The notes beneath the pieces were generated by a model, which ran no database searches, was not told where the DNA came from, and saw only the letters and a list, made by a program, of their open reading frames with translations. Shown here piece after piece: positions 10,420-64,000 of a stretch of 64,000 nucleotides of DNA. The number at the start of each line of letters is the position of its first letter. The stretch's first letter is position 1. Position numbers and translations under genes: made by a program. This DNA comes from Microthyrium microscopicum (Eukaryota > Ascomycota > Dothideomycetes > Microthyriales > Microthyriaceae), in NCBI GenBank assembly GCA_010405405.1, contig MU004231.1, positions 1,233,736 through 1,297,735 on the forward strand, given 5' to 3'.

Positions 10420-11883
10420 TCAATCCGCCTTGAAGACCATTTCACCAAACTTCCAGACCTGTTCGATCTTGAGGCTCTTCCATCCTTCAGCATCTTCACT
10501 GTCGTCCAAAACCACCAGATCTGCATCTGCTCCTGGTTCCAGAACACCTTTGACCCCATCAATGCCGAGCATACGCGCTGGCGTACGGGAAGCCGCAGTG
10601 AGTGACTCTGCGATGCTTGCACCAGTCCAGTTGCGGAAGTTGTTGATGCACTCGATCATCGTGCTCGCACTTCCTGCAATCTTGCCATCTGAGTCAACAA
10701 GGTGCAGTACCTGACCCTTCTTCTCGATGCGATCGCCATTGGTCCAGTCATACACGCCATCGGGCAAGCCGGCAGCAAACATAGCATCGGTGACCAGAAT
10801 ACAGCCTTCACGATGCGCGTGCCAGGCCAGGTTGATACAGGTTGCATGTAGATGAATGCCATCGGCAATCAAACCGAAGAATGGCTTATTGCTACTAGGT
10901 ACGCCGAGCAATCCAAAGATACCTGGGTTGCGATGATGCAAAGGCTCCATGGCGTTGAACAAGTGCGTGATTGTTGATGCGCCGGCCGACAATGCCGATA
11001 TAGCATGCTCGTATGTGGTAGTAGAATGGCCAATGGAAGCGATGATGCCGCGCGCGTCCAAGTCTGCAATGGCATCGATCGCACCGGGTAGTTCGGGTGC
11101 AATGGTGACTAGTCTCACCGTGCTGTTGCTTCCGCCTTGAAGGTTGTCCGCGCCGTAGCATTCGGCAAGTGACGCGAAACCATCTTCAGGCTTGACAAGC
11201 ACGCTCTTCGGATGGATGCCGTTACGACAAGGATTGATGAACGGGCCTTCGCAATGGGCTCCGAGGATTTCAGCACCTTGAGATGCACTTCGGATGGAGC
11301 TGGAAGGCTTGAGGAATGGCAAGACCTAGACCCATTGGTATCAGCTTATGTGTGATGTATCATGGAAGGTGATTGCCAACCTTTTTATAGAGCGTCGTTT
11401 TTTGGCTCGTGATTGTTGGTAGGAAGCTTGTGACTCCAAACTGAACAAGACCTTTTCGGATCTTGTTGACACCTTTTGCGTAGTCGCTCAAGTTGTCGCA
11501 TTCATTCGAAAAGTCGAAACCAAAGCCGCCATTGACCTGAGTCTCGACGAAGCCAGGAGCAAGAATCTTCCCTCCTAGATCGATGACTTTGCTGGGTCCT
11601 AGCTTTTGGCTGTAAAAAACATCTTGACCATGTAGGACTCTGCCCGTCTCAGGGCTAATCCATAGGTCTGCCTTGACCAGACTATCTCCTCTCAAAAGTC
11701 GACAGTTGGTGAATTTGATAACTGTATCGCGGACATTAATTTCATCTGCAGTAAAGTGGACCATGATTTGCTCGTGGACAAGAGCAACCACGAGCTCGCC
11801 ACAGCAGTGCCATGAATACAAGTACTGAGCTACTTACGTTTGCTAGACGTCACTGACGCAGCTTCCGGTATCCTGGGATCCAT
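10420..11883 (-). CDS. dac1: N-acetylglucosamine-6-phosphate deacetylase (438 aa)
   Basis: It removes acetate from GlcNAc-6-P to give GlcN-6-P, the second intracellular step of GlcNAc use. Three exons (11883-11838, 11745-11381, 11325-10420) give 438 residues. The start at 11883 (MDPRIPEAASV) uses a strong donor AAAC/GTAAGTA; a downstream in-frame Met at 11764 would fall inside the first intron. NagA landmarks appear in order: PGFVETQVNGGFGFDF (79-94), metal ligand Glu163 in HCEGPFINP, His237 in IGHSTTTYEH, His258 in THLFNAM, and catalytic Asp317 in VTDAM. These fit a complete amidohydrolase-fold enzyme of normal length. It is divergent with the GH3-GNAT gene across 653 bp, and with the kinase, deaminase and transporter it completes the pathway. 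Confidence 0.95.
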
Positions 11884-12536
11884 TACACGTGGTGATAGTG
11901 AAGTAGTCAACTGGCGCTACTACTTGGGGTGGTGAAGAAAAACAGGGTGACCGTTGCATCATGGCCAGTCCGCGGATCATACTAGCAGATAACTGCACTT
12001 GATATCTAGAAAACTTACTCTACATTAGGCAATACTACATGTTGAAGGCCAAGATAAAGAGGCCGCTAAAAAGTTTGCTTGATGATGATAAGTTTTGGCC
12101 TGCCCTCTACAAGCTTCAGCCATGGTTGGGGGCGGGGAGAGACGAGGATGCCCAAGCGCTAACTGACGCCCCTGACTCAACGCCAATCAGTCAAGCCAAA
12201 GTCCGATGATAACCACCTTAAAGCTCCAATTCAGGCTTTTTCCAGGGGCCATGTAGTCGCTTACTTTATCTAGAATCCCATTCGAAAGTACCACGCCAGT
12301 CAGTCAGCAATCAATCCAACGGATCAGCCAGTGTAACCTCAGGAGCTTGTACGATCGCCACCGTTGAGATTAGGTGTGAGGGCGTACAATGTGACTTAAC
12401 CTTGCTGTCATGCTGCTTCAGTATCATTTGGGCCCGTTGACACCCTGCGTTGAGACGCTGTAACGGCTTGCATCGGAGTTCATTTGCTCTACACTGCTAT
12501 AGCTGGCCGCATTGCGGTTGATTCTCGGCCGTCACC
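11884..12536. promoter_or_regulatory. Shared divergent promoter region of dac1 and the GH3-GNAT gene
   Basis: These 653 bp separate two divergently transcribed GlcNAc-cluster genes, so both promoters must lie here. A CCAAT box is present at 12183-12187 (GCCAATCAG). By eye I found no clear CACAAA-type Ndt80 site, so regulation by the neighbouring Ndt80-like factor is inference from cluster membership. Confidence 0.6.
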
Positions 12537-15500
12537 ATGGCCGTTACTGAGTTGGACGGGGTGTGGAACGATCTGGATCGGTAAGTGAACCCTCTCCTTG
12601 CTTGCCGAATCGGGCCTTGCTAATGTCGGTTTTAGGACGCTTGTATGTCGCCGTTGGCGTGTTTCTGGAGGCCCTCACTAATTCTATAGGGCCAACTGTT
12701 TATGATGGGCTTTGATGGTACTACAGTAACACCTCAAATACGTGAATTGATACAAAGCCATCATATCGGATCTATTTTGTTGACCGCCAAGAATTTACAA
12801 AGTAACTCTCCCAGGTTGCTTTGATATCTTCATCATGCTTATAAGCTTTAGGTGCGGAACATACAACCTCTTTGATATATGAACTACAGAAAACCGCATA
12901 TGATTCAGGACATCCAGTTCCCTTACTTATTGGACTCGATCAAGAGAATGGAGGAGTTAATAGCTTGTTCGACGAGATTTATATCCGTCAATATCCCAGC
13001 GCAATGGGCATCGCCGCAACTAGATCTAAAGAGCTAGCATTTGACGTTGCGAAAGCAACAGGAGAAGAGATATCAGTAAGCACTCCATGGAAAGCTATCA
13101 TCTCTGCCGGTATCTTTGATGTTCTACTGAAATGGTGCTATCACAAAGTATCGCGGAGCACTTTGGTGGATATCAAACCTGCCAGGCCTTGTATTGGCTA
13201 CAGTAACATCTTCTATATTGAATTAAGCTGACCGACAAATCAGGCATGTGGAATCAATCTGGTGATGGGGCCATGTCTGGATGTGCTCACAAATGCGCGA
13301 AATCAACCATTAGGCGTAAGAACAACTGGAGATGGTAGGTTGAGTTTTGGACCAAAAGGAATAGAAGGCTAATCAAAACAGATCCCCAGCAAGTATCAGA
13401 TTTCGGTATTGCCTCTATGCAAGGCTACAAAGCTGCAGGATTATCAACAATGGGAAAGCATTTTCCATCTTACGGTAATCTAGAGTTTCTCGGATCAGCA
13501 TTAGATGTTCCTATCATTACAGAATCCCTGGAACAACTGCAACTAAGTGCTTTGGTACCATTTCGAAATGCAATCAACCTCGGTCTAGATGCCATGATGG
13601 TAGGTGGATGTGCCATGTCGTCAAAGGGTTTAGAAGTGATGCATGCCTGCCTATCAGACCAGGTTGTAGACGGTCTCTTACGCAAAGATCTACACTTTGA
13701 TGGTGTAGTAATATCCGAGTGTCTAGAGATGGAAGCGTTGAGCCACAACATTGGTGTTGGTGGAGGCACTGTCATGGCTGTAAACGCTGGATGTGATCTG
13801 ATATTGTTATGTCGGTCATTCAACGTGCAACAAGACGCTATTAGCGGACTCAAGTCAGGCATTCACAGCGCCATGATAACAATGCCTCGAATACAAAACT
13901 CACTAAGACGAGTACTGCAAATGAAAACAAAATGCACAACCTGGGAGAAGGCTCTCAATCCGCCAGGTTTACCCCTTCTTGGAACTTTACAACCAGCTCA
14001 CACAGCTTTATCCACCAAAGCTTACAACAACTCAATCACTATCGTTCGTGATCGAAACAACTACCTACCCCTGACCAATATCCTAGAGTCAGATGAAGAA
14101 CTATTACTACTTACGCCGCTGGTCAAACCGCTGGCAGCCTCTGCAGCAGCACGAGCTGTTATCGAGTCACTCGCGGTTGGATCACCAGAGCCAGCCGTAT
14201 GGGAACGAAGTGCTTCTGTCATGAGCGGTGAAAGAGTCTTTAGAGAGTTAGGTCGGTCTCTTGCTCGAAGAAGAAATGGAAGAGTACTACATACCTCATA
14301 CACAGCAAATGGACTCCGGCCACAACACGAGCAGCTAATCATAAGAGCTAGCGCAGTGATTGTGGTGACAGCGGATGCTAATCGGAATCTATATCAAACT
14401 GCTTTTGCAAAGCACGTTTCCCTGATGATGTCGCATGGCGAAGAGAAAGAAAAACCATTGATAGTCGTGGCTGTTTCATCGCCCTATGATCTGCTCGACG
14501 CCACCAAAATAGGGACATATGTGGTTACATACGATTTCACAGTACGTCCGTAGACACTATATGCGAAATTGCAAACTTACACCATCTAGGAAACTGCCAT
14601 GACAAGTCTCGTCAGAGTACTGTATGGAGACATCATCCCGTCCGGCTGTCTACCAGGCACCATCAGTCAGAGTCAACGGCTCGGGCCTGCACGCCAGCAC
14701 TGGCTAGTCGAGACCTTCAATGAAGACCGAGACTCCCACGCTCTCGACGCACTGATCAAAACCCTCATCGATGATACGCCCCAAGCCCAACGCATCGAGC
14801 TGTCCGGCGCCACCTCAACCTCACTCATCCTGCATCATCCCGACATTCTCGAGTCGCACTTTGTCGTGCGCAATAGCAGCACGCATGCGCTTTTTGGCTT
14901 CTGCGCTACTTACTTTTTCAAAAAGACCGGCACGGGCGTCATCGGCGCCCTCTTTGTCGACCCGGCCCGCCGCAAACTCTCCATTGGCCGCAGTCTGCAT
15001 AACCGCGCCATCAGCACGTTGCTGCAACGTGAGGGCTCCAAGCGCTTCCAGCTCGGTTCTAGACTGCCCTCTGTGTACTTGGGCATTCCCACAGACCACA
15101 GCATCGAACGCAAGAGACTGCGCTCGTGGTTCGCAAACATGGGCTGGAACACAGCGCTCGCGCGACCCCTCTGCAGCATGATTGCGCGCAACCTGGGCGA
15201 CTGGTCACCGCCCGAAGGCATGGCAGCCTCACTACAGAGCGCAGGCGCAGCCTTCGACCTAGTCTACGGCTGGGAGTTTGCGGGCCCAGTGCTAGACCAC
15301 ATAAAGTCGAGCAACCGACAAGGACTGGCAGAAGTGTATCAGTTGGCGCTCAAGGACAGTGGAGCATGCGGCATCATTCGAGCCAAGCGGCCAGAAGACG
15401 GTGCATTGCTGGGCACGGTAGTTCTGTATAATCAGCATTCTCAGCTGGCAGAGTATATCCCTGCGATCAAGGATCTCACTGAACTAGCAGGAGGTATAAG

Positions 15501-15799
15501 CTCGCCGGTCATAGCCCCTGGAGTTGGGGAATATTCGACTTTACTGCAAGGCTTGATTCTATTGGGTATGCGGCAAATTAAGCAGCAAGGCTGCACGGCG
15601 TGTGTATTGGACTATGTAAGTACATCCTCGTCAGAAGATGCTTGACTCGACATGCTACGGATATTATAGCTAACTTCACGTCTAGATGGATGGCGATGGA
15701 GGATTTGATGGTCTGTCCGCGATGGGTTTTTCGGTCCTGCACAAGTTTGATGAGGTCAGTTGCGATGCTACGACTTTCACTATGCAGCCTCCGAATTAA
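12537..15799 (+). CDS. nag3: Fungal Nag3-type fusion: GH3 (NagZ-like) domain plus GNAT acetyltransferase (925 aa)
   Basis: Eight exons fit: 12537-12580, 12636-12642 (7 nt), 12690-12801, 12852-13075, 13244-13334, 13382-14541, 14590-15615 and 15686-15799. They total 926 codons including the stop. Residues ~10-330 are a GH3 fold of the NagZ type (LGQLFMMGFDGT, PLLIGLDQENGGVN, MGKHFPSYGN, DAMMVGGCAMSS, GVVISECLEMEAL). A GH3 C-terminal-like part follows (~380-540). Residues ~600-900 carry a GNAT region with FVDPARRKLSIGRSLHNRAI, the acetyl-CoA pyrophosphate loop, and a less clear second GNAT-like half. GH3-GNAT proteins of this kind sit in GlcNAc clusters of other filamentous fungi (Nag3 of Trichoderma). 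The NagZ nucleophile block SDDL reads SECL and the Asp-Ser-His dyad loop is not seen, so ordinary hydrolase activity is uncertain. The chain has no signal peptide, so it acts inside the cell. Confidence 0.9.
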
Positions 15800-18700: not shown

Positions 18701-20331
18701 TTGATTTGAGAGTTCAGCATGATGTTGAAGTGCATGGCAAATAAGTGTGTTTCGGGATGTTATAGATGGCTGATTATCAGCATCAAATGACATGTCTTTG
18801 TGCTATAAGCTGCAGACCAAATATGAGCACTCTCTGACCTTACGCCACATTTAATGCTGGTCAAATGCTTGCGACGGCTTTCTACCCCGGGTGAGATCAA
18901 TGTTGAAGAAGGGTAAACACAAGCAGACACCGCCCTTGATGGAGGGATTCACCAATCAGCGAGCTTAGAGTGGTTGAAGCGGAGGTGAGGATGGGCAGCT
19001 GGGAGCGTGAAACAGCAGGATGAACAGTCCACGGTCTTGTGAAGGATGAATAGCTATGCTCCTACCTAGTAGGTAGAGTGAGTGACGGTCAAGGCAGGCA
19101 AAAGGACAGGGAGGAGGGCGTACGGACCCTCTTTCTTCAGGCTTTGGTGCGTGAGGACCGTGCAGTGATAGGATACAAGTATCATGTATGTCAAGTAATG
19201 ATTTTCAGATTGCATATCTGAGCCAGATTTGTGGACAAGACTTGACCGAGTGAAGTGGATGTCTCGATGATTCGAAGAAAAAGGAAAGCAAAGGGCCTCT
19301 GCTTGTTACATGGGGCCTTCTACAGCCGTTAGAGCGTTAGAGCTCGTAGAGTGGCCAAGCGATGCAAGGCTAGGACTGGATCAGGCAGGGCGGTAGAAGA
19401 CGCTGTACAGGTTCTAGCGTTCTGTTGAGTGCATCCTTCTTGGTCTAGTTTGGCCAGCATGGAGCCAGCATGCATCAGGGATCCTGGACGGGCCGCCTCG
19501 AGGGTTGGCAGTTAGTAGTTGATGGTGGTAGTTTAGTGGCAGTTTTTGGTGGAAAAGTACGAAGTACGGGCAGAGGTTCAGTGTATGGTGTTGGGGTGGA
19601 ATTGGGGATGAAGAAGGAGGAGGAATGGGGATTGGAGTTGTGGGAAGACTTCCTAGAAGAGACAAGGAACAAAAGCACAAGCATCAAGAGGCGTACTCCG
19701 AAGCCTTTTGACCTTTTGGCCTTCATACTCTAATACTAATGATTTGGTAGCAGTATGTAAATACAAACTGAATATGTATCGGGTGGCCTGCTCAATGCTT
19801 CCTTCTTAATCTTTTCTACCTTGACTTATTATCATTGTTGATCCACCTGCCTTGCCTTTACTCCTGCAAGTTTCCCGCCAAACCACCGGCGCTGCCTCCG
19901 AGATCCCATCTCCAACCATTTTTACTCGTCTGCACCGTTATCGATACTGTACTCGACGCCGTTGCTTGCGCCATCTATTATTACTGCGCTACCACTGTAC
20001 AGTACATCTGGTGGCTGATTTTCGACCCTACAGTACAGTACTGTGTTGTACTTCCCCAGTACAAAAGTACTTAACTGTCTCTCAAGGGCCTGCTCGGTGC
20101 TCACTCTTTCGCCCGTGACGCCGCAGTATCCACGCTTTATTGCTCCTCCTTCCCACATCTTGGGATCTTACCTTGCCTCCTACATCCACTACCATCTTCT
20201 CCCTCTAAACTACTTCTCGCCTCCACTTTCTTTTCTTCCTCTCCCTCTCCTTCCACTCACCCGCTACTTTACACAGTCGCCATTTCGTGGATCTGCATGT
20301 CGATATTCTTGCCGCGCTTCACCTGCCCGTC
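15800..20331. other. 4.5-kb intergenic region upstream of the Ndt80-like gene
   Basis: No frame with recognisable domains was found on either strand. The part from about 19.8 kb to the start codon looks like a long pyrimidine-rich leader with several upstream ATGs, and probably belongs to the ron1 transcript. The stretch 16-19.7 kb shows short frames with low-complexity translations only. Long upstream regions are common for fungal regulators, so this may be regulatory DNA, or it may hide a non-coding transcript. Confidence 0.5.
19997..20070. promoter_or_regulatory. Cluster of seven GTAC cores in the ron1 leader
   Basis: Seven GTAC tetranucleotides occur within 74 bp, including GTACAGTAC and CAGTACAGTACTG, some arranged as overlapping palindromes. 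GTAC is the core of known fungal copper-response sites and of SBP-type sites. No factor can be assigned from sequence alone. Confidence 0.4.
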
Positions 20332-22057
20332 ATGGACGGTTACGATAGTATTGCGCTGCATCCCTACTCGATGCCAGGACCGGTAGCCCCTCCTCCATCA
20401 GATATGCTCGCAATGTCAAATATGCCAACCGGAGCCATGCTACCATACGACACTCTGGATCAGCACTCCAATTACGACGTAGAAACCTATGCTGGGTAAG
20501 CTACTGCACAGGGCATTATCTTCCGAAACGAAACAGTTATTAACATCGAGTAGGAGCGAAGACGCAAGCCAGTACGGTGCACCCCTCGGTCTCCAACCAC
20601 CAACATCCGCCGGTCTAAAGCGCTATTCCGGAGGCTACGATGATGCTTTCTCGGACGTCCTCAGTACCTTTGATCCAACTATGCAGGGCGAGCCAAGCCA
20701 ACTCGAGAGCTCCTCAATCGACCGAGATCATAAACTCCTCTCCTTCTCCACTCCTTCCCTATCGCATCCTATTCTAGATTACACTTTCCGCCCCACATCA
20801 ATATCACTCTCCGCGCAGTTACATGGAATGTTCTTCCTCGCCGAATCCGCATTTCCGAACCCATCCGAATCGGCCACGCAGACTGAGCTCACCTGCTACA
20901 GGCGCAACCTGTTCCAAGTTACTGGAAGTTTGGCAATACCAAGAGCAATGCGCTACGTGATGAATGATCAAGGAGAGCAAATTCCCATTGTCTCGCAGGA
21001 GCTCACAATATCTGCAACGGAAACTGTTGAGGGGCATGCCGTCAAGATAATTTGTGTGCCTTGGAAAACCCCAGCAACGAGCGTCCCATCATCAGAGGAC
21101 AAGACTGAAAAGGAACCTATGTCAATGCCAATAGATCTTTCCGCTGGACAAGAAGTCGACCCCGATTATGCAACTATCCCAATAGCCTGGAAACGTCTGC
21201 AATTTCGGATAGCTACCGCAAACAATGGGAGGAGAAAAGAACTACAGCAGCATTTTGTAGTTCGGCTAAAAGTCATGGCTACCTTGGCCAATGGTAACTG
21301 TGTAAATATATGCGAGATTCGCTCTGGAGCCATCATTGTGCGAGGGCGGAGTCCCCGGAATTTCCAATCAAGAAAAGATATGCCCATCAGTGGAAGCGGC
21401 TCATTTGGACGCAGGCGAGAGCAAGTAAATCGAACCTCTACAGGCGATTCAAATGTTCCTCAGCCCAAGACAGAGCGTGCTACGCCAAACAACCTCGAAA
21501 TTCCTCAGATGCCATTTACATTTGAATCAGGTCTTTCGCCCGACTTGGTATTTGACTGGAAGATGCCTATGAACACAACCGGCGCAATGACTGCATTACC
21601 GTCTGCATTCGCTGTACAAAATACTGGAGCGGCACCATACGCACAATCAACTCCTGATCTCAAGCATACACCACATACACCACGCGTACCAGCGCGACAG
21701 CCAATCAATCTCTCCCTGGTCGAGGATGACTCCCGTGCCGGCACTACGACTTTTATCACAACCTCTCAGCCTCACCGAATGACAAACTCTGCATCGCCTG
21801 TTGCAAATCCTGCCAAACGGGCCCGAATTCATCGTTCGCAACCACGAACACCATCATTCTCATTAGGCCCTCTTACTACTAGTGATGAGTCTGCGGATAC
21901 TCTTTACGAGTACTTCCCGCTTGGTCTTGATGACTGGATGCCTCCCGTTGATGCTGTCTACAGACCCCACGTAGTACATCACACTAATCTGCCCGCGGAT
22001 CCGAAGGCCATCAAGAACAAAAGCAAGCGCTATTTTTCCGAGGTTCATTCCGTTTGA
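20332..22057 (+). CDS. ron1: Ndt80/PhoG-like transcription factor, RON1 type (555 aa)
   Basis: Nuclear regulator with an Ndt80 (p53-like Ig fold) DNA-binding domain. Two exons, 20332-20495 and 20554-22057, with a 58-nt intron, give 555 residues. The domain spans roughly residues 130-330. It shows LTCYRRNLFQVTG (167-179), the IPIAWKRLQFR strand, GRRKELQQHFVVRLKV, and the basic loop GRSPRNFQSRKD (319-330). The N-terminus is Pro/Met-rich, and the C-terminus is Ser/Thr/Pro-rich with a basic patch NPAKRARIHRSQPR that could serve as a nuclear signal. In Trichoderma the Ndt80-like factor RON1 sits in the GlcNAc cluster and controls it; the same location here, between nag3 and the kinase, supports that role. 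It converges on the kinase gene. Confidence 0.9.
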
Positions 22058-43800: not shown

Positions 43801-44022
43801 TGTGAGGAATCCTCACAGGTTTGGTGTTTTGGTGTTGGATCCAGAGATCTGATCCTGCAGATAAGATCTCTTTATCCCGTTTGGGGTTAGTGTGTCCGAG
43901 GATCCCCCGGGCCCTATATCTTCGCATCCGTAGCTCCATCTCCAGATCTCCTCTCTCCGTACGTAGATCCTACAATATTAGCTACATTCTGCTCGCCTGA
44001 TCGTGCCCGATAGCTCCTCACA
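43801..44022 (+). repeat. Right LTR of the young gypsy element (222 bp)
   Basis: Appears identical to 36362-36583; preceded by a purine-rich tract and followed by the TAGTA target duplication. Confidence 0.95.
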
Positions 44023-47000: not shown

Positions 47001-48200
47001 TATAAATATTAGGTAGTAGATAGAACTCTCTAATCTATTATTAGAAGATATTACTAGCCTTTATAAATTTAGAATATTTAGTAATATACTTAAGAATATC
47101 TTACTTATTAACTATCTAGACTTAAGTAGTATATTAAGAATTTAACCTTAATTTTATAGCTATAACCTTAGAACTATATTTCTTTTAATCTACTAGGTCT
47201 AATCTTCCTAATATTAAAAAAAGAAAATAAATACGTTATAGTTTTTTAAGACTATACTATATAATTCTCTACTAATAAAGCTATGCTAGAATATAAAGAT
47301 ATTTATATCTAAAAAGTATTCTATAAGAAAGTTCTTTTATAAGCTAGATATCTACTAACTACTTTCTTAGATAATAGTATCTAATTCTAGGATAGAAAGT
47401 TTATAAATAAGCTTAAGCTTAATATAGTAAAGATATTCTTTAGTTTACTATATTATCCTTCTTCTATTAGTTTTATTAAAAAGCTAGTCTATATAGTTAA
47501 GGTAAAGATAGTTAAATATATTCTTAATTATCTTAAATAGCTAAAATACTAGTATAAAATAATAGACTAGTAGTTTAAAATACTAGCAAGTAAACTATTA
47601 AAAGTAAAGGAATATATACTTAAAATACTATTATATAGATTTTAATCTTAAAGAATATAGAACTTTATAGTTAATAAGGAACTTAGATAATTAGTAATAG
47701 ATTTAGATTTATAAAAAGAAGTTACTCTATTAAAGCTTAATACTATAGCTTAAGTAAATTAGATAATAAGGCTAGCCTAGCTAAATAAAATTAGGAAGTA
47801 CGCTATAAAAAATTATTCTACTAAAATAATATAATACCTTAGTAAAAACCTTTTAGTAAATAATAATAATATAGAGCTAAGAAATCTAGTACTTATAAAA
47901 GAAGTCTACCTAAATAAATAAAGGAGCTAAGCCTTTTAGCTATAATAGGTTAGGCCCTATATAGTAGAGTCTCTTAATAATAATAGCTAGATAGTTATAA
48001 TAAAAGGAATCTTTTTAGGTTAAATTTATAAGGATATATAATAATATCTAGATAATCTAAAGATCTATCTAAAAAAGGGGGAATCTCCTTAGATTCTAGG
48101 AAATCTAGAAGAATAGATAAAGAGATTATAAAGTAATATATCTATTTAGTAGAATATATTAAAATAAGAGTAGCTACTAGAGTTTAAAGAGCTTAAAGAT
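44023..48200 (+). mobile_element. Old RIP-degraded Ty3/gypsy-like element, right part
   Basis: Continues the degraded sequence cut by the young insertion. Reverse-transcriptase-like traces are recognisable near 45.4-45.75 kb (the KTAFN and FIDDDI blocks), RNase-H-like traces near 46.2-46.5 kb and integrase-like traces near 47.1-47.6 kb, all on the plus strand and in Ty3/gypsy order. It is broken throughout by transition mutations, so only the family can be given. The right end is not defined. Confidence 0.55.
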
Positions 48201-52490: not shown

Positions 52491-52495
52491 GACTA
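52491..52495 (+). repeat. Target-site duplication GACTA, left
   Basis: GACTA directly before the left LTR is repeated at 60378-60382 after the right LTR. Confidence 0.85.
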
Positions 52496-52713
52496 TGTAA
52501 TAATTCCTTATAGTACTATATTGAGAGAGATCTTAGTATTATAAGATTACGCGCTAGACCTAGAGAGTATTAGCGCGTCTAAGGTTCTACTAAGTGGACT
52601 TACTTTCCTTATAGATTCGCAATAGTTCTAGATCTTCTTCCTCTCTCTCTTATACGTAGATTCTTAAATACTAGCTAATTATCTACTTACTCTAAGTCCT
52701 ATTGCTTATTATA
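52496..52713 (+). repeat. Left LTR of the degraded gypsy element (218 bp)
   Basis: Aligns without gaps to 60160-60377; begins TGTAATAATTCCTTATA, an AT-shifted form of the inverted-repeat start seen in the young element's LTR. Confidence 0.85.
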
Positions 52714-55700
52714 TAATCTATATACTACAAAATCGTTACGTGCTTATACTACGTATTAAAAAGCTTTAAATCGTTTAGCGTAAGCAATATCTTATTACTC
52801 TTTATATAGGCAATATCTTATTATACTTTATGTATAGAACCCTGAAATTTTAAGCCCTACTTTAAAATCTAATAATACTAAAACTAATTAGCGCGTTAGG
52901 ATTCCCTAATACTAATTATCCTAATTAGTATTAGACTAATAAAAGGTCTAAGCTTTAATTGCCTCTTAATTACTTACGTATAGAAATACTAAATTTATCT
53001 TCCTTACTATAATCTCTCTAAATACTACCTTTAAACTAAAATTATTCTTAACTCTAAATCCCTTTTATAGCGTTTATTAATTAAAGACTCTAATAGCTAG
53101 TAAGAATCTATTATTATTATAAATAACTAAGTTCCTTTACTACTATAAAGTAGATATAGAGTAGATAGCTATCTATACTAATCTTTTTTACCCTAGTATA
53201 AGGCTAACTAGCTTAATTATTATTAATTTTTATCTTCTTTATATTACCTATTAATTTTAGGTTATCTTCTTACTATACTAAATATTAGCTAGTTAGATAC
53301 TTAGAATATAGTATAGATTTTATAATTTATAAAGAAGCTACTTATACGTAACTAAGAACTATAGAAATTATTAGTAAACTTTAATAAAGATAATAATAAT
53401 TAGCTACTTAGGTTATTATAAAAAGAGAGTAAGGAGAAAGCCCTAATTCGTAATAATAAAAGAGTAAGACCTTTAAAATAGTATATTAAAGACATTACTT
53501 ATAAAGGAGATAAGGAATTTAGAAGTAAAAAGGAAGGTAATATTACTAAAATCTATAGAATCTTTAAAGATAATACTAGCTTATTATAAGAAATTATTAA
53601 ATAGTTAGCAGTTATATAAAAGAATCTAGAATTAGTAGATATTTCTCTAATATTTAAGAGCTACTATATAGTTACTATAAATTTAAACTATATTATTAAT
53701 CTCCTAGTAGACTATAAGCTATTATAATTCTAAGCTATAGCGCGCTAAGTATTACCTAGTTAGAAAGACTAGAAGTTAAAGCTTACCCTACTAATAGTAT
53801 AAAAGACCCTAAAAGACTTAGAACTACTATACTATAATTACTTTATTATCTAATCTAGCTAAGGCCTTACCTATACTCTAAAAGGTAACCTAGACCTTAA
53901 TAAATTTATTATAATATTATTTAACTACTACTTAAAGATATAGGCTATGTCTTACTTCTATAATATAGAATAAGATATAAACGTCATCTAAGCTAAGTAA
54001 TTAAATAAAGAGAAAGCCTATAGCGCCTAGCTAGAGGAAGACGCTAAATAAAACTAGAATTTAGTAGATAATCTTATAAAAGTAAATAAAGATTATTAAG
54101 TAGAGATCTTATAGCTAAATACTAGACTTTAAGATAGTAATATTTTTCTTAATAAGAGAGTTGCTACTTATAAAACTATAAATAACCTCTAGTATAATAA
54201 TACCCTCCTAAAAGATATAGTTACGTCTTAATTTTCTAAATTAGATTAGTTCTAAACTATACTTTAGTAGAAAGTTAACAAAGTTATAGTACTTTAAGTA
54301 TAAGTTAAAGCCTTCTAAAAGTCTAAAGCACTTAAGAAGATAAATAACCCTTACGCTAATCTTAATAAGAATACTAATAATAACTTACTACGCTCTACAT
54401 TAGTTAGTCCTAATTTAAACTTAAATTATTAGTCTCTATATAGAAGTTCTATACCTTGCTAATTTACCTCTAATTTCTTAATATACGCTATAAGTAAAGG
54501 TTTTAAAGAATAAAGAGAAAAGCTTACTAAGTTTAATAAAAAGAATAAAGATAAGTACTATACTTAGAAAGCTAAAGTGCTTAATTATCTTAATAAGAAT
54601 ACCCTTATATATAATATAGAGTTATTTAAAATTTGTCTAATTTAGGAATAGATAGATAAATAGGCCTTTACTACTATTAAGGAGCAAAGTAAATAAGATT
54701 TTTATAATCTATATCTTTACTTAAAAGAGGTATAGGTAGACCTAGACTATAAATACACTACTAAGGATAGTTTTATAAAGGTTAAAACCTAGCTTAAAAT
54801 ATTAAAAGCTTAAATAAAGATATTAGAAAAGGTAGAAGAATACCTTACTTACTTCTCTTCTAATTCCTATAAAGTAAGATTATTTAACGAAGAGAAGATT
54901 ATTAAATTACGCAACTTATTACTAAAGCGTTTTACTAATTATCTACTATTTATTAAACTAGACTCTTACTTTAAATTTATTAATAACCTTTATAAAGTAT
55001 TCTATTAAATAAAATATTAACTTTCTATAGAAACTAATAATAATAGCTACTCTAACTCTAATAGCTTTTATAGAGGCTATAGAGGTAGAAGGCGTAAAAA
55101 CTATAATAGTAGTAGTAGCACCTATAATAATATTACTAATAATAATAGCAAAATTATACGTTTATAGGAAGTCTTTTATACCCTACGAAAGAATAACTAT
55201 TATATCTAATATAAAGAATAAGGATATAGCTATTAGAAAGTAAATACTCTATATATAGATAAAAATTCTTTTTCTAATACTAAGATTTATGCTAAAGTTA
55301 CTTATATAGCTACTATCTTTACTATAGTATTTATATAACTTAATTTTAATCTTTTACGTACTAATAATAACTTAGAAAACTAAAGGCTCTTCTATATAGA
55401 TACGTAAAGAAGCTAAATAAGTAAGAAGTATATAACTATTAAAAGAAGAAGAAATATTAAGTATATATATCTAATTTAGAAGATAAGCTAAAGACTATTT
55501 TTATTATTAATAAAATATTAAGATATTAAGCTTATATATTTAACCCTAACTTAGATAATAAGGAAGAGAATAAAGATATACTAAATTATAACTTTAACTT
55601 TAACCTAGAGCTAAATCTAGAGCCTATAAAGAAGACTTAGTCTAAATAATTAACTATAAAAGAATAAACATTTAATAAAGAACTTATTTTTACTAAAGAA

Positions 55701-58700
55701 TAAATCTAGAGTATAGTCTAAGATATAATTAAATACTTATAAAAATTAGTAAAGCTAGAGTTTATAGTAATCTAAATCTCTTTAGTATCTATTACTAATA
55801 GTTTTTATCTAAGAAGTATTTCTAAGATACTTATAGTTAATAATTAGTAGACTACTAAAGGTATAGCTTATTTATTAAAAGTAGAATATTACGTCTAAAC
55901 TAATATATTAATTAATATAAGAAGTAGAGTAATAGGTATTATATACCTAAATTTTATTTATTAATATAGTATTTCTATAATAAATCTATCTACTCTTTAA
56001 GTAATATAACTTACTAATAGCAAAGTAGTTATTAAGGTAGATAAAGCTACTATAATAAATATACGTCTTAGTAAGTATATTAAGTAAATCTACTACTTTA
56101 TTATAAATATTACTAATTATAATATTATCCTTAAAAATTTATAGGTAAACCTCTATAAAGTTACCTTTAAAGGAGATAAGAAGGAAATCTACTTTAACTC
56201 TACTTATTACTTAGTAAATTATCTACTCTATAGTTACTTAATATTAGTAGATTATAAAGGCTATTTTTATAACCTTACTAATTCTCTACTAAATAAGAAA
56301 AACGTTACTATAATTAATATAGTAGCTTTTATAAAAATGCTAGAATAAAGATAAGAATTTAGTAAAGTATAGCTAGAAAATTTAGATAAAGATAAAGATA
56401 AAGCACTACTAGATTCTTTTATATTAAAAACGCTAAAAGAGAATATTATAATTAATCTTTCTAAGATATTTCTAGAAGACTATAAAAAGTAGTATAAGAA
56501 GTATAATTAGCCTCTATTAAGTTAGGAAGAAATCTTAAAGAAACTACTAAAGGAATTCTATTACTATATTAATATCTTTAACCTAAAGCTAAGTAATAAT
56601 TTAGTACTATACTATAGTAAATAGGACTACTCTATTAATATTATCCTTAATACTACTATTCCTAAGTAAAGATATAATATCCTCTTATATTAAGAATTAC
56701 TAGTTATTAAGTAGTATATTAATTAAATACTTAGCTATAATTAAGTTTAAGCTAGTAAATTCTACTTTGCTATCCTAATATTATATATATATAAACCTAG
56801 AGGTAGTATCTACATCTATATTAATTATTAAAGCTTAAATAAAATTACCTAGAAGAACTATAACGTTCTTCTATAACTACTAGAAACCTTAGCTAGAATA
56901 TATTATATAAAATTCTTCTTAAAATTTAACATTATTATAGTCTTTACTTATATCTAAATTAAACTAGAAAATAAATATAAAACTATATTCCTTACTTATT
57001 ATAGTCTCTATAAATTTAAGGTTATATTATTTAGCCTTATTAAAGCTCTAAGTATCTTTTAAGTATACTTAAATTACGTCCTTATAAAATACTTTAATAA
57101 CTTTATTATAGGCTATATAGATAACCTCTTAGTTTTTAGTAAGAGCTAAGATTAGCATACTATATATATCTACCTTATCCTAGAAGCTATAGGTAAAGTA
57201 GGCCTCTATCTTAATATTAATAAGTATAACTTCTTTACTAAATAAATTAAATACCTTAGCCTTATTATTACTACTACTAGTATTAAAATAGATCTAGATA
57301 AAGTTAAAAACGTTACTAAATAGGCTTAACCTTTATTAATTAAAGACGTATAGGCGTTTCTAAGCTTTACTAATTTCTATTACTATTTTATTTATAGTTA
57401 CTCCTAAATTACTACCTCTCTTACTATCTTTACTAAAAAAGATATAATAGTAATCTTTTTATAGAATCTAGATAGACCTAAGGACTACATATTTAAAAAG
57501 CTAAAAAAGGACTTTACTACTATACTTATTCTTTATTACTTTAATTATATAAAGGAAATATAGTTAGAGATAGATGCCTTTAATTAGATATATACTATAG
57601 TACTTTCTTAGAAAGATAAAGAAGGTAAATTATAGCTTATTATATTCCTATTAAAGAAGATAACTCTTACTAAATATAACTATAATATTTATAATAAAGA
57701 GTTATTAGTAATTATCTACGCCTTTAAAGAATAGAAACTAAAGCTATTCTTTATAATAGATATAGTTAAGGTATTCTTAAACTACTAGAACTTATAAACT
57801 TTTATAATAACTAAAAAGCTATTTTACTAATAGATAAGATAAGCTAAATTCCTATCCTAATTCTACTTCTAAGTTTAGTATTACCCTAGTCTATTTAATA
57901 GCAAAGCTAATATACTTACTTACTAATTATAAGATCTACCTTAGGATAATAATAACCTATAAGTCTCTTAATAAGTCTAACTACTATTATTCTCTTACTA
58001 ATTTAATATTCTTTACGCTATTAAGTTAGCCTTACTATTAGTTAAACTAATAATACTATTAATTATATACTTAGTTACTCTTACTTAGAATAAGTTAGAT
58101 ATTTTAACCTTTATAAAGGAGTTAATAAATCCTATAAAGGGGCTAGCTAATAATAAAAGACTACCTAGAAAAGAGTTAATAAAACTCCTAGGAAATAATA
58201 AATTCCTAAATTTTAATAATAATTAGTTTATATAGGATATAGTTTAAGAGTTTACTAGTAATAAAACTATAGAAGCTATCTAATAAGCTAAAGTAAACTA
58301 CTAAACGTATCTACTCTTTAATATACCTAAGTAGGAAAGTATTAAGCTAGATAACTACGTAGTTACTATAAATAATATAATTCTATATTATAACTATATC
58401 TTTATTCTTTATAATAAATTACGTTATTAAGCCCTATTCTTTACTTATAGCTATAAAGTTATAAGTTATAAAAGAGTAGCTATAACCTATTATTATTTAT
58501 AAGAAACCTATTAGTAGCCTAAAATATTATAAGATATAAAGATATATATAAAAGATTATAAATACGTCTTTACTAAATTAGTATAATAAAAAAAGTAAAA
58601 ATTCTTAAGAAGCTTCCTCTTACTAGAATGCACTTAGTTAGATATTTCTATTAACTTTACTATTTTATTACTATATTATTACTACTAAGGAATAATCTAT

Positions 58701-60044
58701 TACTACGTTATAGTTATTATAGATCATTATATAAGAATACGTTATTTTATCTTACTATTAGACCTTTCTATAGAATCTATAGTTTTAGTATTTATTAACT
58801 ATATCTAGAAATTAGTAAGTTAGTCTAAAAGTATTCTTTTAGATTATAGTAGCTAATTTACTTTAGCCTTTTAGAAACATTTATATAAACGCGTTAGTAC
58901 TATTCTTTACCTTAGTATAGCTTTTTACTTAGAAATAGATAGTATTATAGAAATCTCTATTATAGCCTTAAAGTAGTATTTATAAGCCTTTATTAATTAG
59001 GATTAAGATAACTAGGTTACTTTATTATTATTTACAGAATTTATAGTTAACTTAATAGTAAACGTAATTATAAGAATTATGCCTTTCTAGGTATAAAATA
59101 GCTTTAACTCTTAATTAGGCCTTAAAGCTAATTATTCTATTCCTTACTTATTCTACGCCTTTACTACTACTAATAAGGAAAAAGCTAATATAGATATTAT
59201 ATAGTAAGGCTATACTAATATATATAAATACCTTATAAAGTAACTTACTTAAGCTTAGGTATAATAAGCTAAGTATACTAACTATTATTACTAAGCTATA
59301 TTAGATTTATAGCTAGGTAATTAAGTAAGATTAGATACCTATAATTACTCTACTTCTTATTCTTTAAAAATACTTAATAATAAAAGCTCTAAACCTTTTT
59401 ATATTATTAAAAAGATTAATGCTATTATATATAAGCTAGATCTACCCTCCTTAATAAAAATATATAATATCTTCTATACTTAGATCCTCTACTATATTAT
59501 TAATAACGCTAAATTCTTAAAACATTTAAATTCTTTTTTTACAATTATAGATAAAACTAAAGAAACTACAAAATAGTAGGTAGATATAATTATTAATAGC
59601 TATTATAAGCCTTAGATTAAGAAGAAGACGTTATAGTATATAATTAAATTTATAAGCTATAATATAGTAAAATAGTATAATTAGCATAATGCTAAAAACG
59701 CTCTAAATCTAATTATAGAATTCTATGCTTATTATCTTAATAAACTAGGCTTTTACTCTTCTTAGATCTTACTATAGCTAGAGTTAACTAAAGATAATAA
59801 CGTTATATATAACTTTAATAGTATCTTTACTAACTAGTACTAAAAAGTTTACTTTCTTTATATTACTAATATCCTTATTTAGTATAGATATACTAGCCCT
59901 TAGACTACTAAGACTTAAGAATTAGAGTATTCTAGAGATATCTTAAGGTTTATTAATACCTCTTAATAGTTACTTTAGTAGGCTAGAGGTTAAGATACTC
60001 TAAATATCTAATTATTAGCATTATATTATAGAAGGAATTTATTA

Positions 60045-60110
60045 GACTAGACTAGATTAGACTAGACTAGATTAGACTAGACTAGAATAGACTAGAATAG
60101 ACTAGAAGAG
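60045..60110 (+). repeat. (GACTA/GATTA)n pentanucleotide repeat in the degraded gypsy element
   Basis: About a dozen 5-bp units just before the polypurine tract. The pattern is what RIP would make of the (GGACT)-type repeat found at the same position in the young element. Confidence 0.7.
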
Positions 60111-60159
60111 TAATAATAAGCTAAGATAGCTTAGAGAGCTATTCTAAAAGGAGGAGTTA

Positions 60160-60377
60160 TGTAATAATTCTTTATAATACTATATTAAGAGAGATCTTAG
60201 TATTATAAGATTACGTACTAGACCTAGAGAGTATTAGTATATCTAAGGTTCTACTAAGTAGACTTACTTTCCTTATAGATCTATAGTAGTTCTAGATCTT
60301 TTTCCTCTCTCTCTTATACGTAGATTCTTAAATACTAGCTAATTATCTACTTACTCTAAGTCCTATCGCTCGTTACA
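60160..60377 (+). repeat. Right LTR of the degraded gypsy element (218 bp)
   Basis: Preceded by a purine-rich tract and followed by GACTA. It ends CTCGTTACA, so the terminal TGTAA/TTACA bases are inverted. Confidence 0.85.
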
Positions 60378-60382
60378 GACTA

Positions 60383-61150
60383 TACGATAAAGCACTTAGA
60401 TTATCTGCTACTAAACTACTTCCTTAACGACCTACTAGTTTAACCTACTTTACTTATAGATAAATATAAAAACGAACAGTAGTGCGATAGCGATTATCTA
60501 CTATAGCTATAAGATTATATAAATATTAACTCTAATAGTAACTAGATAGATAATAATAAGAAGGATAGTAACTACAATAATTAATTTAAATTCTATACTA
60601 ATAAACTACCTAAAGAAATTAAGTACTATAGTAAACTATTAAATAGTACGCCTTAGTTAATAATAGTACCCTAAGAGAATAATATTATACTTAAGAAAGT
60701 ACTAATTAAAATATCTACTTTAATTAACTACTTTATTATAGAGAAAGTTATAATAAATAATTAATATAGGGATTATAATAATCTTAAGGAATATAAATAC
60801 CTTAATAATTTAGAGGCTAGATAACTACTTAATAAAGTTAGGTAGCAAAATTTATCTATATAATAGGTCTATAATAGTATAATCTAATAAAAGAATGTAT
60901 AGCTTTATAGTCTTTAGTTTATATATTATCTAATATAGTAAAAATATAATTAGATAAGCTTCTTATCTTTAGAGCTAATAATATTTTCTAATACTATATT
61001 ACTAACTATTTATAGCTTATTATAGCCTTTGCCTATTTTATAATAAAATAAAGTTAAGAACCTAAATATAGATACTTATTACTTAATACTATATTTAATA
61101 TATATAAAGATATATAAGATTCTTTATAAAAAGGAATAGCCTAAAAAAGA
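60383..61150 (+). other. Unidentified RIP-degraded reading frame, right of the gypsy insertion
   Basis: AT-rich but with more CpA left than in most of the island. One plus-strand frame looks coding-like (for example LTDYTIKHLDYLLLNYFLND at its left end), again with interruptions of the RIP type. No family recognised. Its position suggests it belongs with the degraded frame left of 52490. Confidence 0.4.
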
Positions 61151-61380
61151 ATATAACTTATTATTAACTATCTAACTTAAATAGAAATTATTTCTAGATA
61201 ATATACTAGAAAATAGTAAAGAAGAGAATAAAGATACTAAAGAAGAGGATAAGGAAACTAAAGATAGTAAGTCTACTAAGACTAATAAAAAGGAAATTAA
61301 GTAATAAGAAATTTATTAATAAAAGGTTTATTTATATATAAGATTAAGATTATATCTTAACCTTTATTATTTATAGAATA

Positions 61381-61625
61381 GTTAATAGCTAAATTACTAA
61401 CCTATAGTCCTTAGTACTATATAGACCTAATAGCGTAGACTATATCTAAAAGTATAGAAATAGGTAAGATCTTAACTTACTTTAATTATTAAGATATACG
61501 TTATATAGCTAAATTAAGTACGTCTTCTATATTTGATTCATATCTTCTTGTCCTCTAAATTCCACGACGTACATTTAAACGCACGGTGGAAGCGCTAGCC
61601 TATTTGGAGGTTCACACATAAACAA
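61381..61625 (+). repeat. Right copy of the 245-bp direct repeat bounding the island
   Basis: Gap-free match to 30164-30408. The inner ~150 bp are AT-shifted and the outer ~95 bp are of normal composition, a mirror image of the left copy, so the mutated zone ends inside both copies. Confidence 0.85.
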
Positions 61626-63086
61626 CGCGACCAAAGGTCCGGCGAATAATACACATGCCAGTGCTTCTTTTCTCCACTTCCATACTTCAATATCAAATGA
61701 TCCACCTCCTACGCTAAAGTTAAATGGACAGAGGCTAGAGTGCTAGCAGCCGTACCCTTGGGACAGTGGTCATACATCTGACAGTCGATATTGCCAGCGT
61801 AAAGCTACATAAGAAACCGGCTGCCTCTGAGCTTCAACCTGAGCGCCTTAAGCTTTCAACTCAGAAATTTGAATCAAGAACTTTCTAATGGCTAAAAAGC
61901 AATGGCTGGAGTTGAACGCCACAATCGCGTAGTCCCCGCTATTTTTAAGAGCCGCATACCTCAACGGGCTATAATTAGTTTAGTTACTGGAGAAAGAGAA
62001 GAAGCCTTCTCTTGAGCAATAGTAGGCATTGTGAGAGGAATGTTGATAGGTCAAGTTTTCGCTTTGGATAACTTACTTCAGGTTTGATACTTCCTCATGG
62101 ACTGGTTACAAGCACACAAGCATGACTGATTGATCGTGAAATGCAAGCGGGCAAACGAATCAATGGGCTTCAAGCCGACTGCGACCCTGGCGCTAGGAAC
62201 ACAACCTCGCGATGCAACCATCTTTCGCTCGCCAAGCCTTTTCCAACTTCAACTTCAACTTCACCACTCCCGTCACTAGCACTATCAGGTCTCTGCAAAC
62301 TAACCCAAAGATACGACTGGTATCAAATCTGTAGCTACCTGACTGGTATCTTCTTATCCTGCTAGCATTTAATGCCACGGTAACTAGGTACATACACCCT
62401 CTAGAGTCTAGCTCTTGATGATACTGCACAATCGGGCAGTTGACTACCACAACCTTGCCATCAGAATAGCGGATATCGTCGGAAGAAAGATATCACAATC
62501 CACTGCTACACATCCCAGCAACACATCTATCATGATCAGAGAAACATAGCGATCACTTCGTCACTTTGCATCTCCAACGAGGGTCAATACCCCTCCAGTG
62601 GAAATCTCGTGGAGATCCCAGAAGCTTGTTCGGGCCTGTCAAGCGCGAATGTTTAGCAAGTCCACCCATGATACGACCTTCTCGTAGCATGTGTGTTCAA
62701 AGCTACCCCATGTGCAACTCTCAGCCTTGTCCCAGTATCAATGTAGGCATAAAAAACTTTCTTCCACTATAGCTTCTGTAACACCGAGTCATCACCACTT
62801 TTCTTGCCTGTGCTAGTATCGATGAGTCTGATTTGCCTCTTGTGACGACCGATTGGAGACCTTGCTAGGACTTTGTCAAACGCTCGCTAGGTCATTCCAT
62901 GGCAAGTTACTGCCTACCGCTTGGGGAGGGAGCTTGTTGGATGGTATATATCGAGTGGTGTCATCAATAGTAGACAAGATATGGAGACAAGAAACCTAAA
63001 CTTCTACATTGCTCGATAACCCCTGAGCCAAGATAGAATTTACAACACCATCATCAAACTTACACCCTTCCTATATCCCAAGCAAA
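61626..63086. promoter_or_regulatory. Upstream region of dam1, right flank of the island
   Basis: Normal-composition DNA with no recognisable coding domains; small frames (62141-62365, 62566-62772) look spurious. It must hold the dam1 promoter and, before the island arrived, probably formed one divergent promoter with 29363-30163. Confidence 0.5.
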
Positions 63087-64000
63087 ATGTATGCTACCCT
63101 CTCCTCCCTATAGCCAACCAGCTAACCACAACCAGGCGTCTCGTCGTACGTGATAACCAAGCCACCGCATCTGAATATGTAGCCGAATACATCATCCGTA
63201 AGTTCCTCCCAGCAACACCATTCCCACCACAACCTTTCTCCTAAAAACATCCAGAGCGCATCAACGCCTTCGCCCCAACCGCCACCCGCCCTTTTGTTCT
63301 CGGCCTTCCCACCGGCTCCTCCCCCCAACAAGTCTACGCCATCCTCGTCGCCGCCTTCCGCGAAAAGCGCATCAGCTTCAAACATGTAATCACCTTCAAC
63401 ATGGACGAGTACGTCGGACTACCTTCAGCCCACCCACAGTCCTACCACACTTTCATGTACAACCACCTCTTCAGCCACATTGACATCGACCCTTCCAACG
63501 TGCACATACTCGACGGCAACGCACCAGATCTAGAGAGTGAGTGCGCAGCCTACGAAGCAGCGATTCGCAAGGCTGGCGGAATCGAGCTGTTTCTAGGCGG
63601 CATTGGGCCAGATGGACATGTGGCGTTCAACGAGCCTGGGAGTTCGTTGAATAGTCGCACACGCGTCAAGACACTGGCGTATGATACGATTCTGGCGAAT
63701 AGTCGGTTCTTTGGAGATGATTTGGGGAAAGTGCCGCGGATGGCATTGACGGTTGGTGTTGCGACGGTTTTAGCGGTAAGTTTCGCACATTACTGCAGAT
63801 CTGTCAAAACCTTTTAGGCTAATTGGTGCATTTAGGCCAAGGAGGTTGTCATCATCATCACTGGCGCCCACAAAGCTCTTGCGCTGCAAAAATGCATCGA
63901 GGGCCCGGTCAACCACATGTGGACGCTGAGTAGCTTGCAAATGCACCAACATGCGCTCATTGTGGTCGATGAGGATGCTACGCTCGAGCTGCAGGTTAAG
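63087..64000 (+). CDS. dam1: Glucosamine-6-phosphate deaminase (NagB family), runs off the right edge
   Basis: It converts GlcN-6-P to fructose-6-P and ammonium, the last step of GlcNAc catabolism. Exons 63087-63088, 63136-63197, 63255-63775 and 63836-64000+ splice in frame. The first intron (47 nt, GTATGC...CTAAC...CAG) splits the start codon as AT/G, giving [20 protein letters not shown], which matches the MKLII start of animal GNPDA. The sequence keeps the family motifs: [13 protein letters not shown], the general-base Asp in FNMDEYVGL, and the active-site loop [28 protein letters not shown] and [10 protein letters not shown] follow near the right edge. About 250 residues are present; the family is ~270-360 long, so little is missing. 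It belongs with dac1, hxk3 and ngt1 but is cut off from them by the 31-kb island. Confidence 0.95.

What the first reader, a model, noticed from the sequence alone, without database searches (positions are those of the whole stretch)
10420..64000. GlcNAc catabolic cluster split by a 31-kb transposon island
Deacetylase, GH3-GNAT, Ndt80-like regulator, GlcNAc kinase and transporter are contiguous (10.4-29.4 kb), but the deaminase of the same pathway lies beyond a 31-kb RIP island at 63.1 kb. Cluster composition matches the RON1-controlled cluster known in Trichoderma. The island sits between ngt1 (-) and dam1 (+), probably in what was their shared divergent promoter. This raises the question whether dam1 is still co-regulated and whether heterochromatin affects both genes.
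Basis: partly seen in the sequence, partly recalled or inferred. Interest (0 to 1): 0.75.

Follow-up and report, generated by a model that had tools for sequence, protein, structure and literature searches.

The report
Retrotransposon nest splits sugar gene cluster
In the leaf-dwelling fungus Microthyrium microscopicum, one large retrotransposon landed between two neighbouring genes for eating N-acetylglucosamine, two more nested inside it, and the genome's defence mutated two of the three, so one pathway gene now lies 34 kb from its cluster; the event is clear and young, but probably changes little.

Summary
Confirmed, and sharper than proposed. The window is from Microthyrium microscopicum (Dothideomycetes). 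dac1, ngs1 (GH3-GNAT), ron1, hxk3 and ngt1 lie at 10.4-29.4 kb; dam1 starts at 63,087 and is the only deaminase found. The island (30,166-61,624) is ONE ~15.9-kb LTR element with ~241-bp terminal repeats and a 4-bp target duplication (ATGC/ACGC, one transition), opened by two nested LTR retrotransposons with perfect 5-bp duplications: one RIPed (52,496-60,377), one intact and un-RIPed (36,362-44,022). Four other genomic copies run straight through both nested sites. So one insertion split a ~2.26-kb divergent ngt1-dam1 interval. In relatives the two genes share a contig in 11 of 14 species named in both tables, with consecutive locus tags in Neodothiora. Founder copies differ by ~10% transitions but 0.1-0.2% transversions: young, and damaged by RIP. 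Here RIP stops ~100 bp inside each LTR and does not leak; 0.8 and 1.46 kb of native upstream DNA survive. Published split or unlinked members of this regulon stay inducible, so dam1 most likely stays co-regulated. Expression and chromatin are untested.

The parts
10420..11833 (-). dac1, GlcNAc-6-phosphate deacetylase (two frames; start about 11,764, inferred)
   Evidence: Pfam Amidohydro_1 48.8 bits; translations
12845..15645 (+). ngs1 (= nag3), GH3-GNAT sensor/acetyltransferase; true start not modelled; GH3 part reads GKHFPSYG
   Evidence: Pfam GH3 106.3 bits and Acetyltransf_1 26.8 bits; translation
20329..22057 (+). ron1, Ndt80-like regulator (start inferred)
   Evidence: Pfam NDT80_PhoG 134.6 bits; ORF list
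23500..25133 (-). hxk3, GlcNAc kinase
   Evidence: Pfam hexokinase 1 and 2; placement of P0241
27409..29362 (-). ngt1, GlcNAc transporter (MFS), start codon at 29,362
   Evidence: 100% identical protein P0001 of M. microscopicum; exon placement
29363..30165 (.). native DNA upstream of ngt1, 803 bp, not RIPed (CpA 1.01, TpG 1.09 o/e)
30162..30165 (.). left 4-bp target duplication ATGC of the founder element
30166..61624 (+). founder LTR element (15,906 bp without nested inserts), RIPed
   Evidence: terminal direct repeats; collinear with four other copies
30166..30406 (+). 5' LTR of founder; outer ~100 bp un-RIPed
36362..44022 (+). nested intact Ty3/gypsy chromovirus-like element, 222-bp identical LTRs, TSD TAGTA (36,357-36,361 and 44,023-44,027)
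36925..39189 (+). first open frame of the intact element (754 aa, gag position, no Pfam match)
39171..43502 (+). pol frame of the intact element (1443 aa: protease, RT, RNase H, integrase, chromodomain matches)
46290..46460 (+). weak RT-RNase H trace in the founder element (position mapped from the C1 copy, approximate)
   Evidence: E 5.8e-5, below Pfam cut-off
52496..60377 (+). nested RIPed Ty3/gypsy element, TSD GACTA (52,491-52,495 and 60,378-60,382)
61383..61624 (+). 3' LTR of founder; outer ~100 bp un-RIPed
61625..61628 (.). right 4-bp target duplication ACGC of the founder element
61625..63086 (.). native DNA upstream of dam1, 1,462 bp with the duplication, not RIPed (CpA 1.12, TpG 1.16 o/e)
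63087..64000 (+). dam1, glucosamine-6-phosphate deaminase, 362 aa, continues past the window end to about 64,336; start codon split by an intron in my model

Best explanation
An ancestral GlcNAc catabolic cluster with ngt1 and dam1 as divergent neighbours about 2.26 kb apart was split by one insertion of a ~15.9-kb LTR element, 803 bp upstream of ngt1 and about 1.46 kb upstream of dam1. A second LTR element inserted into it. Repeat-induced point mutation turned both into ~20% GC DNA. Later a third, chromodomain Ty3/gypsy element inserted into the AT-rich island and has escaped RIP so far. The nesting is shown by sequence; the place of the third element in the order is inferred from its lack of RIP. 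The working state is inferred: RON1 recruits the acetyltransferase NGS1 separately to what remains of each promoter, so ngt1 and dam1 stay GlcNAc-inducible although an H3K9me3-type domain probably sits between them. The confidence given is for the insertion history; the regulatory part is nearer 0.8.
For: Terminal direct repeats at both island ends, 241 nt, spacing 31,217. Four other full copies (two on C3, one each on C1 and C11) collinear with 30,166-36,362 / 44,023-52,503 / 60,373-61,627; 15,967, 15,976 and 15,761 bp in three against 15,906 here; C11 lacks about 0.2 kb and the fourth copy has a further insert of about 7.1 kb. 4 of 4 other copies align without a gap through both nested sites. 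TSDs: TAGTA and GACTA perfect, ATGC/ACGC with one transition. Founder LTR pair: 43 transitions, 1 transversion, 1 gap position. Window and three other founder copies: 9.4-10.0% transitions, 0.10-0.19% transversions. Intact element: LTRs 0 of 222 differences; no stop in its pol, while the 33 other matched stretches in the genome carry 14 to 118. Single dam1. Regulon works when unlinked: 25 further RON1- or NGS1-dependent amino-sugar genes outside the cluster in T. reesei (passages); three genes non-clustered yet induced in A. fumigatus (passages); cluster split by an inversion in A. nidulans.
Against: The founder's target duplication is imperfect (3 of 4 bases). Orientation and spacing of ngt1-dam1 in relatives were not seen. 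Three of the 14 species named in both tables show different contigs (Hortaea, Aureobasidium pullulans, Friedmanniomyces endolithicus; different strains or assemblies possible), and Lepidopterella has dam1 and hxk3 on different contigs. No RON1 motif could be shown: CACAAA-type sites are not enriched and no k-mer is clearly shared by the promoters. No expression or chromatin data.
Confidence: 0.87

Rival explanations
1. The island does change regulation: heterochromatin on 24 kb of RIPed DNA spreads into, or insulates, the ngt1 and dam1 promoters, so dam1 is silenced, variegated or uncoupled from the cluster. (This concerns the regulatory part only.)
For: In another Dothideomycete, Leptosphaeria maculans, TE-rich regions carry H3K9me3 and genes fully inside such domains are less expressed (passages). 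dam1 lies in a ~7.7-kb enclave, with another AT-rich block starting at about 69.3 kb.
Against: RIP itself ends ~100 bp inside the window's LTRs and the flanks have normal dinucleotides. 0.8 and 1.46 kb of native DNA remain. dam1 is intact and matches solved deaminases at E down to 1e-106, but the insertion is too young for decay to be expected.
Confidence: 0.15
2. dam1 was brought beside ngt1 by recombination between two copies of the founder element at different loci; the two genes were not ancestral neighbours.
For: The flanking 4-mers are not identical (ATGC/ACGC); other copies exist on other contigs.
Against: 3 of 4 bases match (chance about 13 in 256 by simple counting); one of the five other insertions also differs by one transition; ngt1 and dam1 share contigs in 11 of 14 species and have consecutive tags in Neodothiora.
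Confidence: 0.05
3. The island is a regional centromere or other chromosome landmark, not a chance insertion.
For: AT-rich, RIPed, 31 kb; such centromeres are known in some fungi (recalled).
Against: 8 of 59 readable 500-base samples along C2 (a 60th read N) have GC below 0.35, so AT-rich blocks are common on this contig; founder and nested families occur on other contigs too; the structure is explained by three insertions.
Confidence: 0.03
4. The island grew from several independent insertions side by side, with no founder.
For: Three elements are present.
Against: Two elements lie inside the third, each with its own perfect target duplication, and 4 of 4 other founder copies are continuous there.
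Confidence: 0.01

Closest known systems
RON1-controlled GlcNAc catabolic cluster (Trichoderma reesei; Kappel et al., PMC4950302: abstract, section 5, part 1 of 2 of section 10, and passages seen)
   Same: Same six genes: hxk3, dac1, dam1, ngt1, ron1, nag3/ngs1.
   Different: dam1 is 34 kb away behind a retrotransposon nest. The text seen describes a split by inversion in A. nidulans and single unrelated genes inside clusters in some species, not a transposon split. Figure 2A itself could not be seen.
AT-rich transposon islands of Dothideomycetes (Leptosphaeria maculans; PMC8159818, passages seen)
   Same: AT-rich, TE-rich blocks beside genes.
   Different: Here one island can be resolved to a single founder insertion and two nestings, and it sits inside a primary-metabolism cluster. 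H3K9me3 is not measured here.
RIP of full-length LTR elements but not solo LTRs (crapaud in Podospora; PMC10787394, passages seen)
   Same: Full copies RIPed.
   Different: Here the outermost part of the LTRs of full copies is spared: outer 50 bp at 9 of 10 edges, out to about 100 bp at 6 of 10. I did not see this described in the passages read.
NGS1 GlcNAc sensor (PMC5063960 and PMC12176254, passages seen)
   Same: GH3 plus GNAT architecture; a K-H pair in the GH3 part, as in the GlcNAc-binding K175-H176 of the C. tropicalis protein.
   Different: Function not tested here; residue equivalence not aligned.

Membership tests
RON1-type GlcNAc catabolic cluster | hxk3, dac1, dam1, ngt1, ron1 and nag3/ngs1 genes present | tested here: met
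   six of six by Pfam; ngt1, dam1 and hxk3 also by homologues
RON1-type GlcNAc catabolic cluster | genes closely linked | tested here: inconclusive
   five within 19 kb; dam1 34 kb from ngt1 across the island
RON1-type GlcNAc catabolic cluster | RON1/NGS1-dependent GlcNAc induction | not testable with these tools
   needs expression data; motif scans uninformative
RIP-mutated DNA | loss of CpA/TpG with gain of TpA, C-to-T type changes between copies | tested here: met
   CpA 0.09, TpG 0.08, TpA 1.42 o/e; 98-99% of base differences between founder copies are transitions
RIP-mutated DNA | RIP machinery (RID-type methyltransferase) in the genome | tested here: inconclusive
   six PF00145 matches at about four loci, all over cut-off; RID not separated from DIM-2 or others
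LTR retrotransposon (founder element) | direct LTRs with TG...CA ends and short target duplication | tested here: met
   LTR start TGATAG, end ...CA; six insertions (five full, one solo): 4 perfect 4-bp duplications, 2 with one transition (read)
LTR retrotransposon (founder element) | reverse transcriptase, RNase H, integrase | tested here: inconclusive
   only weak RT_RNaseH matches in one of six forward-frame pieces of the C1 copy, best 23.6 bits against a cut-off of 24.8; reverse-strand frames not searched
Ty3/gypsy chromovirus (intact nested element) | RT, RNase H, integrase and chromodomain in one pol | tested here: met
   RVT_1, RT_RNaseH, Integrase_H2C2 over cut-off; rve 30.6 vs 32.6 and Chromo 24.6 vs 25.1 just under
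Regional centromere | unique AT-rich block per chromosome | tested here: not met
   AT-rich samples recur along C2

The most novel reading that the evidence does not exclude
The split cluster is a natural insulated-heterochromatin experiment: a domain carrying H3K9me3 is trapped between two promoters that NGS1 must acetylate at H3K9, and the un-RIPed LTR edges plus native upstream DNA act as boundaries, so that GlcNAc itself sets how far heterochromatin reaches and dam1 expression has become conditional or variegated.
Probability: 0.1. Interest if true: 0.65.

Novelty: new member of a known kind. Interest (0 to 1): 0.42.

Why it matters
Fungal clusters are thought to hold together for co-regulation. 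Here a primary-metabolism cluster was cut by one recent, fully resolved insertion, with native promoter DNA left on both sides, so the value of adjacency can be tested directly. The pathway's own sensor is (in Candida) a histone acetyltransferase acting on H3K9, the residue that heterochromatin methylates. The founder's copies also show where RIP starts and stops inside a repeat.

Tried and rejected
Ndt80-type CACAAA sites: none in the ngt1 or dam1 upstream DNA (0 seen; 0.89 and 1.62 expected for NCRCAAA); 2 sites in five promoter regions in all, both upstream of ron1. The Candida Rep1 motif is A-rich and differs from CACAAA (passages), so the scan is a weak test.

Shared k-mers among five cluster promoters: counts within the range of 200 simulated sets (18 seven-mers in four or more regions against a mean of 10 and a maximum of 19); ngt1 and dam1 share fewer than the simulated mean at all three lengths.

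Second deaminase: rejected; the other PF01182 match is a 265-aa frame that reads as 6-phosphogluconolactonase.

Coding content of the founder: six forward-frame pieces of its least AT-rich fetched copy gave only a weak RNase H trace; pol of the intact element found nothing convincing in it (best E 0.096).

Print: 'N-acetylglucosamine + catabolic gene cluster + transposable element + fungi + deaminase' gave 0 papers; a search for RIP sparing repeat edges gave 0 papers (at least 4 of 5 terms). Listings on RIP, AT-rich DNA and clusters were seen, not read through. PMC3248453 was searched for element lengths without a useful passage; PMC11969663 and PMC12543289 for edges and leakage: passages seen, edge sparing not found in them. 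All are narrow looks at an open-access library.

Centromere, patchwork island and recombination readings: see rivals.
Full report
WHAT WAS CLAIMED. A GlcNAc catabolic cluster at 10.4-29.4 kb, with its deaminase stranded at 63.1 kb beyond a 31-kb RIP island, the island lying in a former shared divergent promoter.

WHERE IT IS. The window is C2:1,233,736-1,297,735 of a 36.9-Mb, 20-contig genome. The ngt1 frame matches, at 100%, a protein named Microthyrium microscopicum on a contig of 4,495,203 bases, the length of C2. It is a Dothideomycete (recalled), not a Trichoderma.

THE GENES. Database proteins place ngt1 at 29,362-27,409 and hxk3 at 25,133-23,500. I model dam1 as 362 aa with a start codon split by an intron; it matches solved glucosamine-6-phosphate deaminases over its first ~260 residues at E down to 1e-106. 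The genome has only one other PF01182 match, a 265-aa frame that reads as 6-phosphogluconolactonase (my reading). The GH3-GNAT gene keeps a K-H pair like the one that the Candida paper names as GlcNAc-binding (not aligned).

THE ISLAND IS ONE INSERTION. GC falls from about 0.50 to 0.20 between 30.3 and 61.5 kb, with normal GC at 36.4-44.0 kb. CpA and TpG are at 0.09 and 0.08 of expectation. A repeat search found a 241-nt direct repeat at the two ends of the island, 31,217 bases apart, and two further LTR-like pairs inside. Searching the genome with the two ends gave 11 and 12 matches; they pair into five full copies, the window's among them, plus one solo LTR on C10 and one fragment on C3. The four other copies were fetched. 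They are collinear with the window in three blocks, 30,166-36,362, 44,023-52,503 and 60,373-61,627, and lack both nested elements; the C11 copy also lacks about 0.2 kb and the copy near the start of C3 has a further insert of about 7.1 kb. With one copy of each target duplication kept, 4 of 4 copies align in one block through both sites (one of the eight alignments stops 3 bases short of the end). The founder is 15,906 bp here and 15,967, 15,976 and 15,761 bp in three others.

TARGET DUPLICATIONS. Nested intact element: TAGTA. Nested RIPed element: GACTA. Founder family: GCGT, ACGT, GGGT and GCGT perfect; TCGC/CCGC and, in the window, ATGC/ACGC with one transition each (read from the ends printed).

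ORDER AND AGE. Founder first, then the RIPed nested element, then (by its lack of RIP) the intact one. Between the founder's LTRs there are 43 transitions, 1 transversion at the end base and 1 gap. Among the window and three other copies, transitions are 9.4-10.0% and transversions 0.10-0.19%. So the copies were nearly identical when RIP struck and little time has passed since. The intact element has 0 of 222 LTR differences with the ends set exactly (with ends 5 bases too long, showed 2). Its pol is the only one of 34 matched stretches without stops; the other 33 have 14 to 118, nearly all TAG or TAA. I convert none of this to years.

HOW FAR RIP REACHES. Counting CpA/TpG in bins of 50 bases inward from the ten edges of the five copies, the outermost 50 bases keep five or more at 9 of 10 edges; the next 50 keep three or more at 6 of 10 (both edges of the window's copy, of the C1 copy and of one C3 copy); further in, 0 to 3 remain. 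The one exception is the 5' edge of the copy near the start of C3, whose flank is itself AT-rich and RIPed. In the window the outer part of each LTR is preserved and the inner part mutated. The 803 bp upstream of ngt1 and 1,462 bp upstream of dam1 have normal CpA and TpG.

ANCESTRAL STATE. No fungal genomes with gene order were open to these tools, so I used contig lengths and locus tags in the homologue tables (best 120 rows each). Leaving out Microthyrium, 14 species are visibly named in both the ngt1 and dam1 tables. In 11 the two proteins sit on a contig of the same length (Patellaria, Aulographum, Lophium, Lineolata, Baudoinia, Pseudovirgaria, Teratosphaeria nubilosa, Meristemomyces frigidus at 67,129 bases, Macrophomina, Neodothiora, Aaosphaeria). 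In 3 they do not (Hortaea werneckii, Aureobasidium pullulans, Friedmanniomyces endolithicus as named), where rows may come from different strains. Two further dam1 rows whose organism name was cut off share the contig length of the Coniosporium and Friedmanniomyces ngt1 rows. In Neodothiora populina the tags are consecutive (AAFC00_006051 ngt1, AAFC00_006050 dam1). hxk3 and ngt1 have consecutive tags in four Alternaria. Against: Lepidopterella has dam1 and hxk3 on different contigs, and Tothia fuscella's dam1 was not in the listed rows. Orientation and spacing in relatives were not seen.

LIKELY FUNCTION. In C. albicans the RON1 orthologue recruits Ngs1, on which GlcNAc-induced promoter H3K9 and H3K14 acetylation depends. 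In T. reesei both regulators are needed for GlcNAc genes, including 25 amino-sugar genes outside the cluster. A. nidulans has the cluster split by an inversion, and A. fumigatus A1163 has three non-clustered, induced genes. So adjacency is not required and dam1 is most likely still induced. The chance that the island alters expression is real but unsupported. In L. maculans TE-rich regions carry H3K9me3; here that is inference. No binding motif could be shown.

SURROUNDINGS. AT-rich blocks are common on C2: 8 of 59 readable 500-base samples are below 0.35 GC (57 of the 60 places on a 75-kb grid that leaves out this island and one more point, 3 added by hand; one sample read N). dam1 sits in a ~7.7-kb enclave; another AT-rich block begins at about 69.3 kb and has ended by the 80.3-kb sample.

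VERDICT. It is a well-documented instance of a known process in an informative place, not a new kind of system.

Noticed in passing
36362-44022: The only member of its gypsy family found without RIP damage: pol has no stop codon, while 33 other matched stretches in the genome carry 14 to 118 stops (best candidates only). Its two frames overlap by 19 bases in the -1 frame.
   Followed up: partly
30166-61624 and copies on C1, C3 (two), C11: A ~16-kb LTR family with only ~241-bp LTRs and 4-bp target duplications, five of six containing CG (one of the five in only one flank); coding content obscured by RIP.
   Followed up: partly
30166-30270 and 61520-61624: RIP spares the outermost 50 bp of full-length founder copies at 9 of 10 edges and about 100 bp at 6 of 10, a possible read-out of how much homology RIP needs at a repeat end.
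   Followed up: partly
63087-63136: dam1 start codon appears split by an intron (AT|G). The database model P0121 starts upstream instead; 30 of 119 listed homologues also carry extra residues before the conserved RLIIR motif, 75 start with M directly before it, 13 lack the exact motif and 1 starts at it, so N-termini may often be mis-annotated.
   Followed up: partly
61625-69300 (past window end, L003): dam1 lies in a ~7.7-kb gene enclave between two AT-rich blocks, with frames that look like an aldo-keto reductase and a CCHC zinc-finger protein (my reading).
   Followed up: partly
15650-20300: 4.7 kb between ngs1 and ron1 with no gene that I could assign; possibly a long ron1 leader or an unrecognised gene.
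   Followed up: no
16988-17565: Two overlapping unassigned frames on the minus strand; the 16,988-17,449 frame has no Pfam match, the other was not tested.
   Followed up: no
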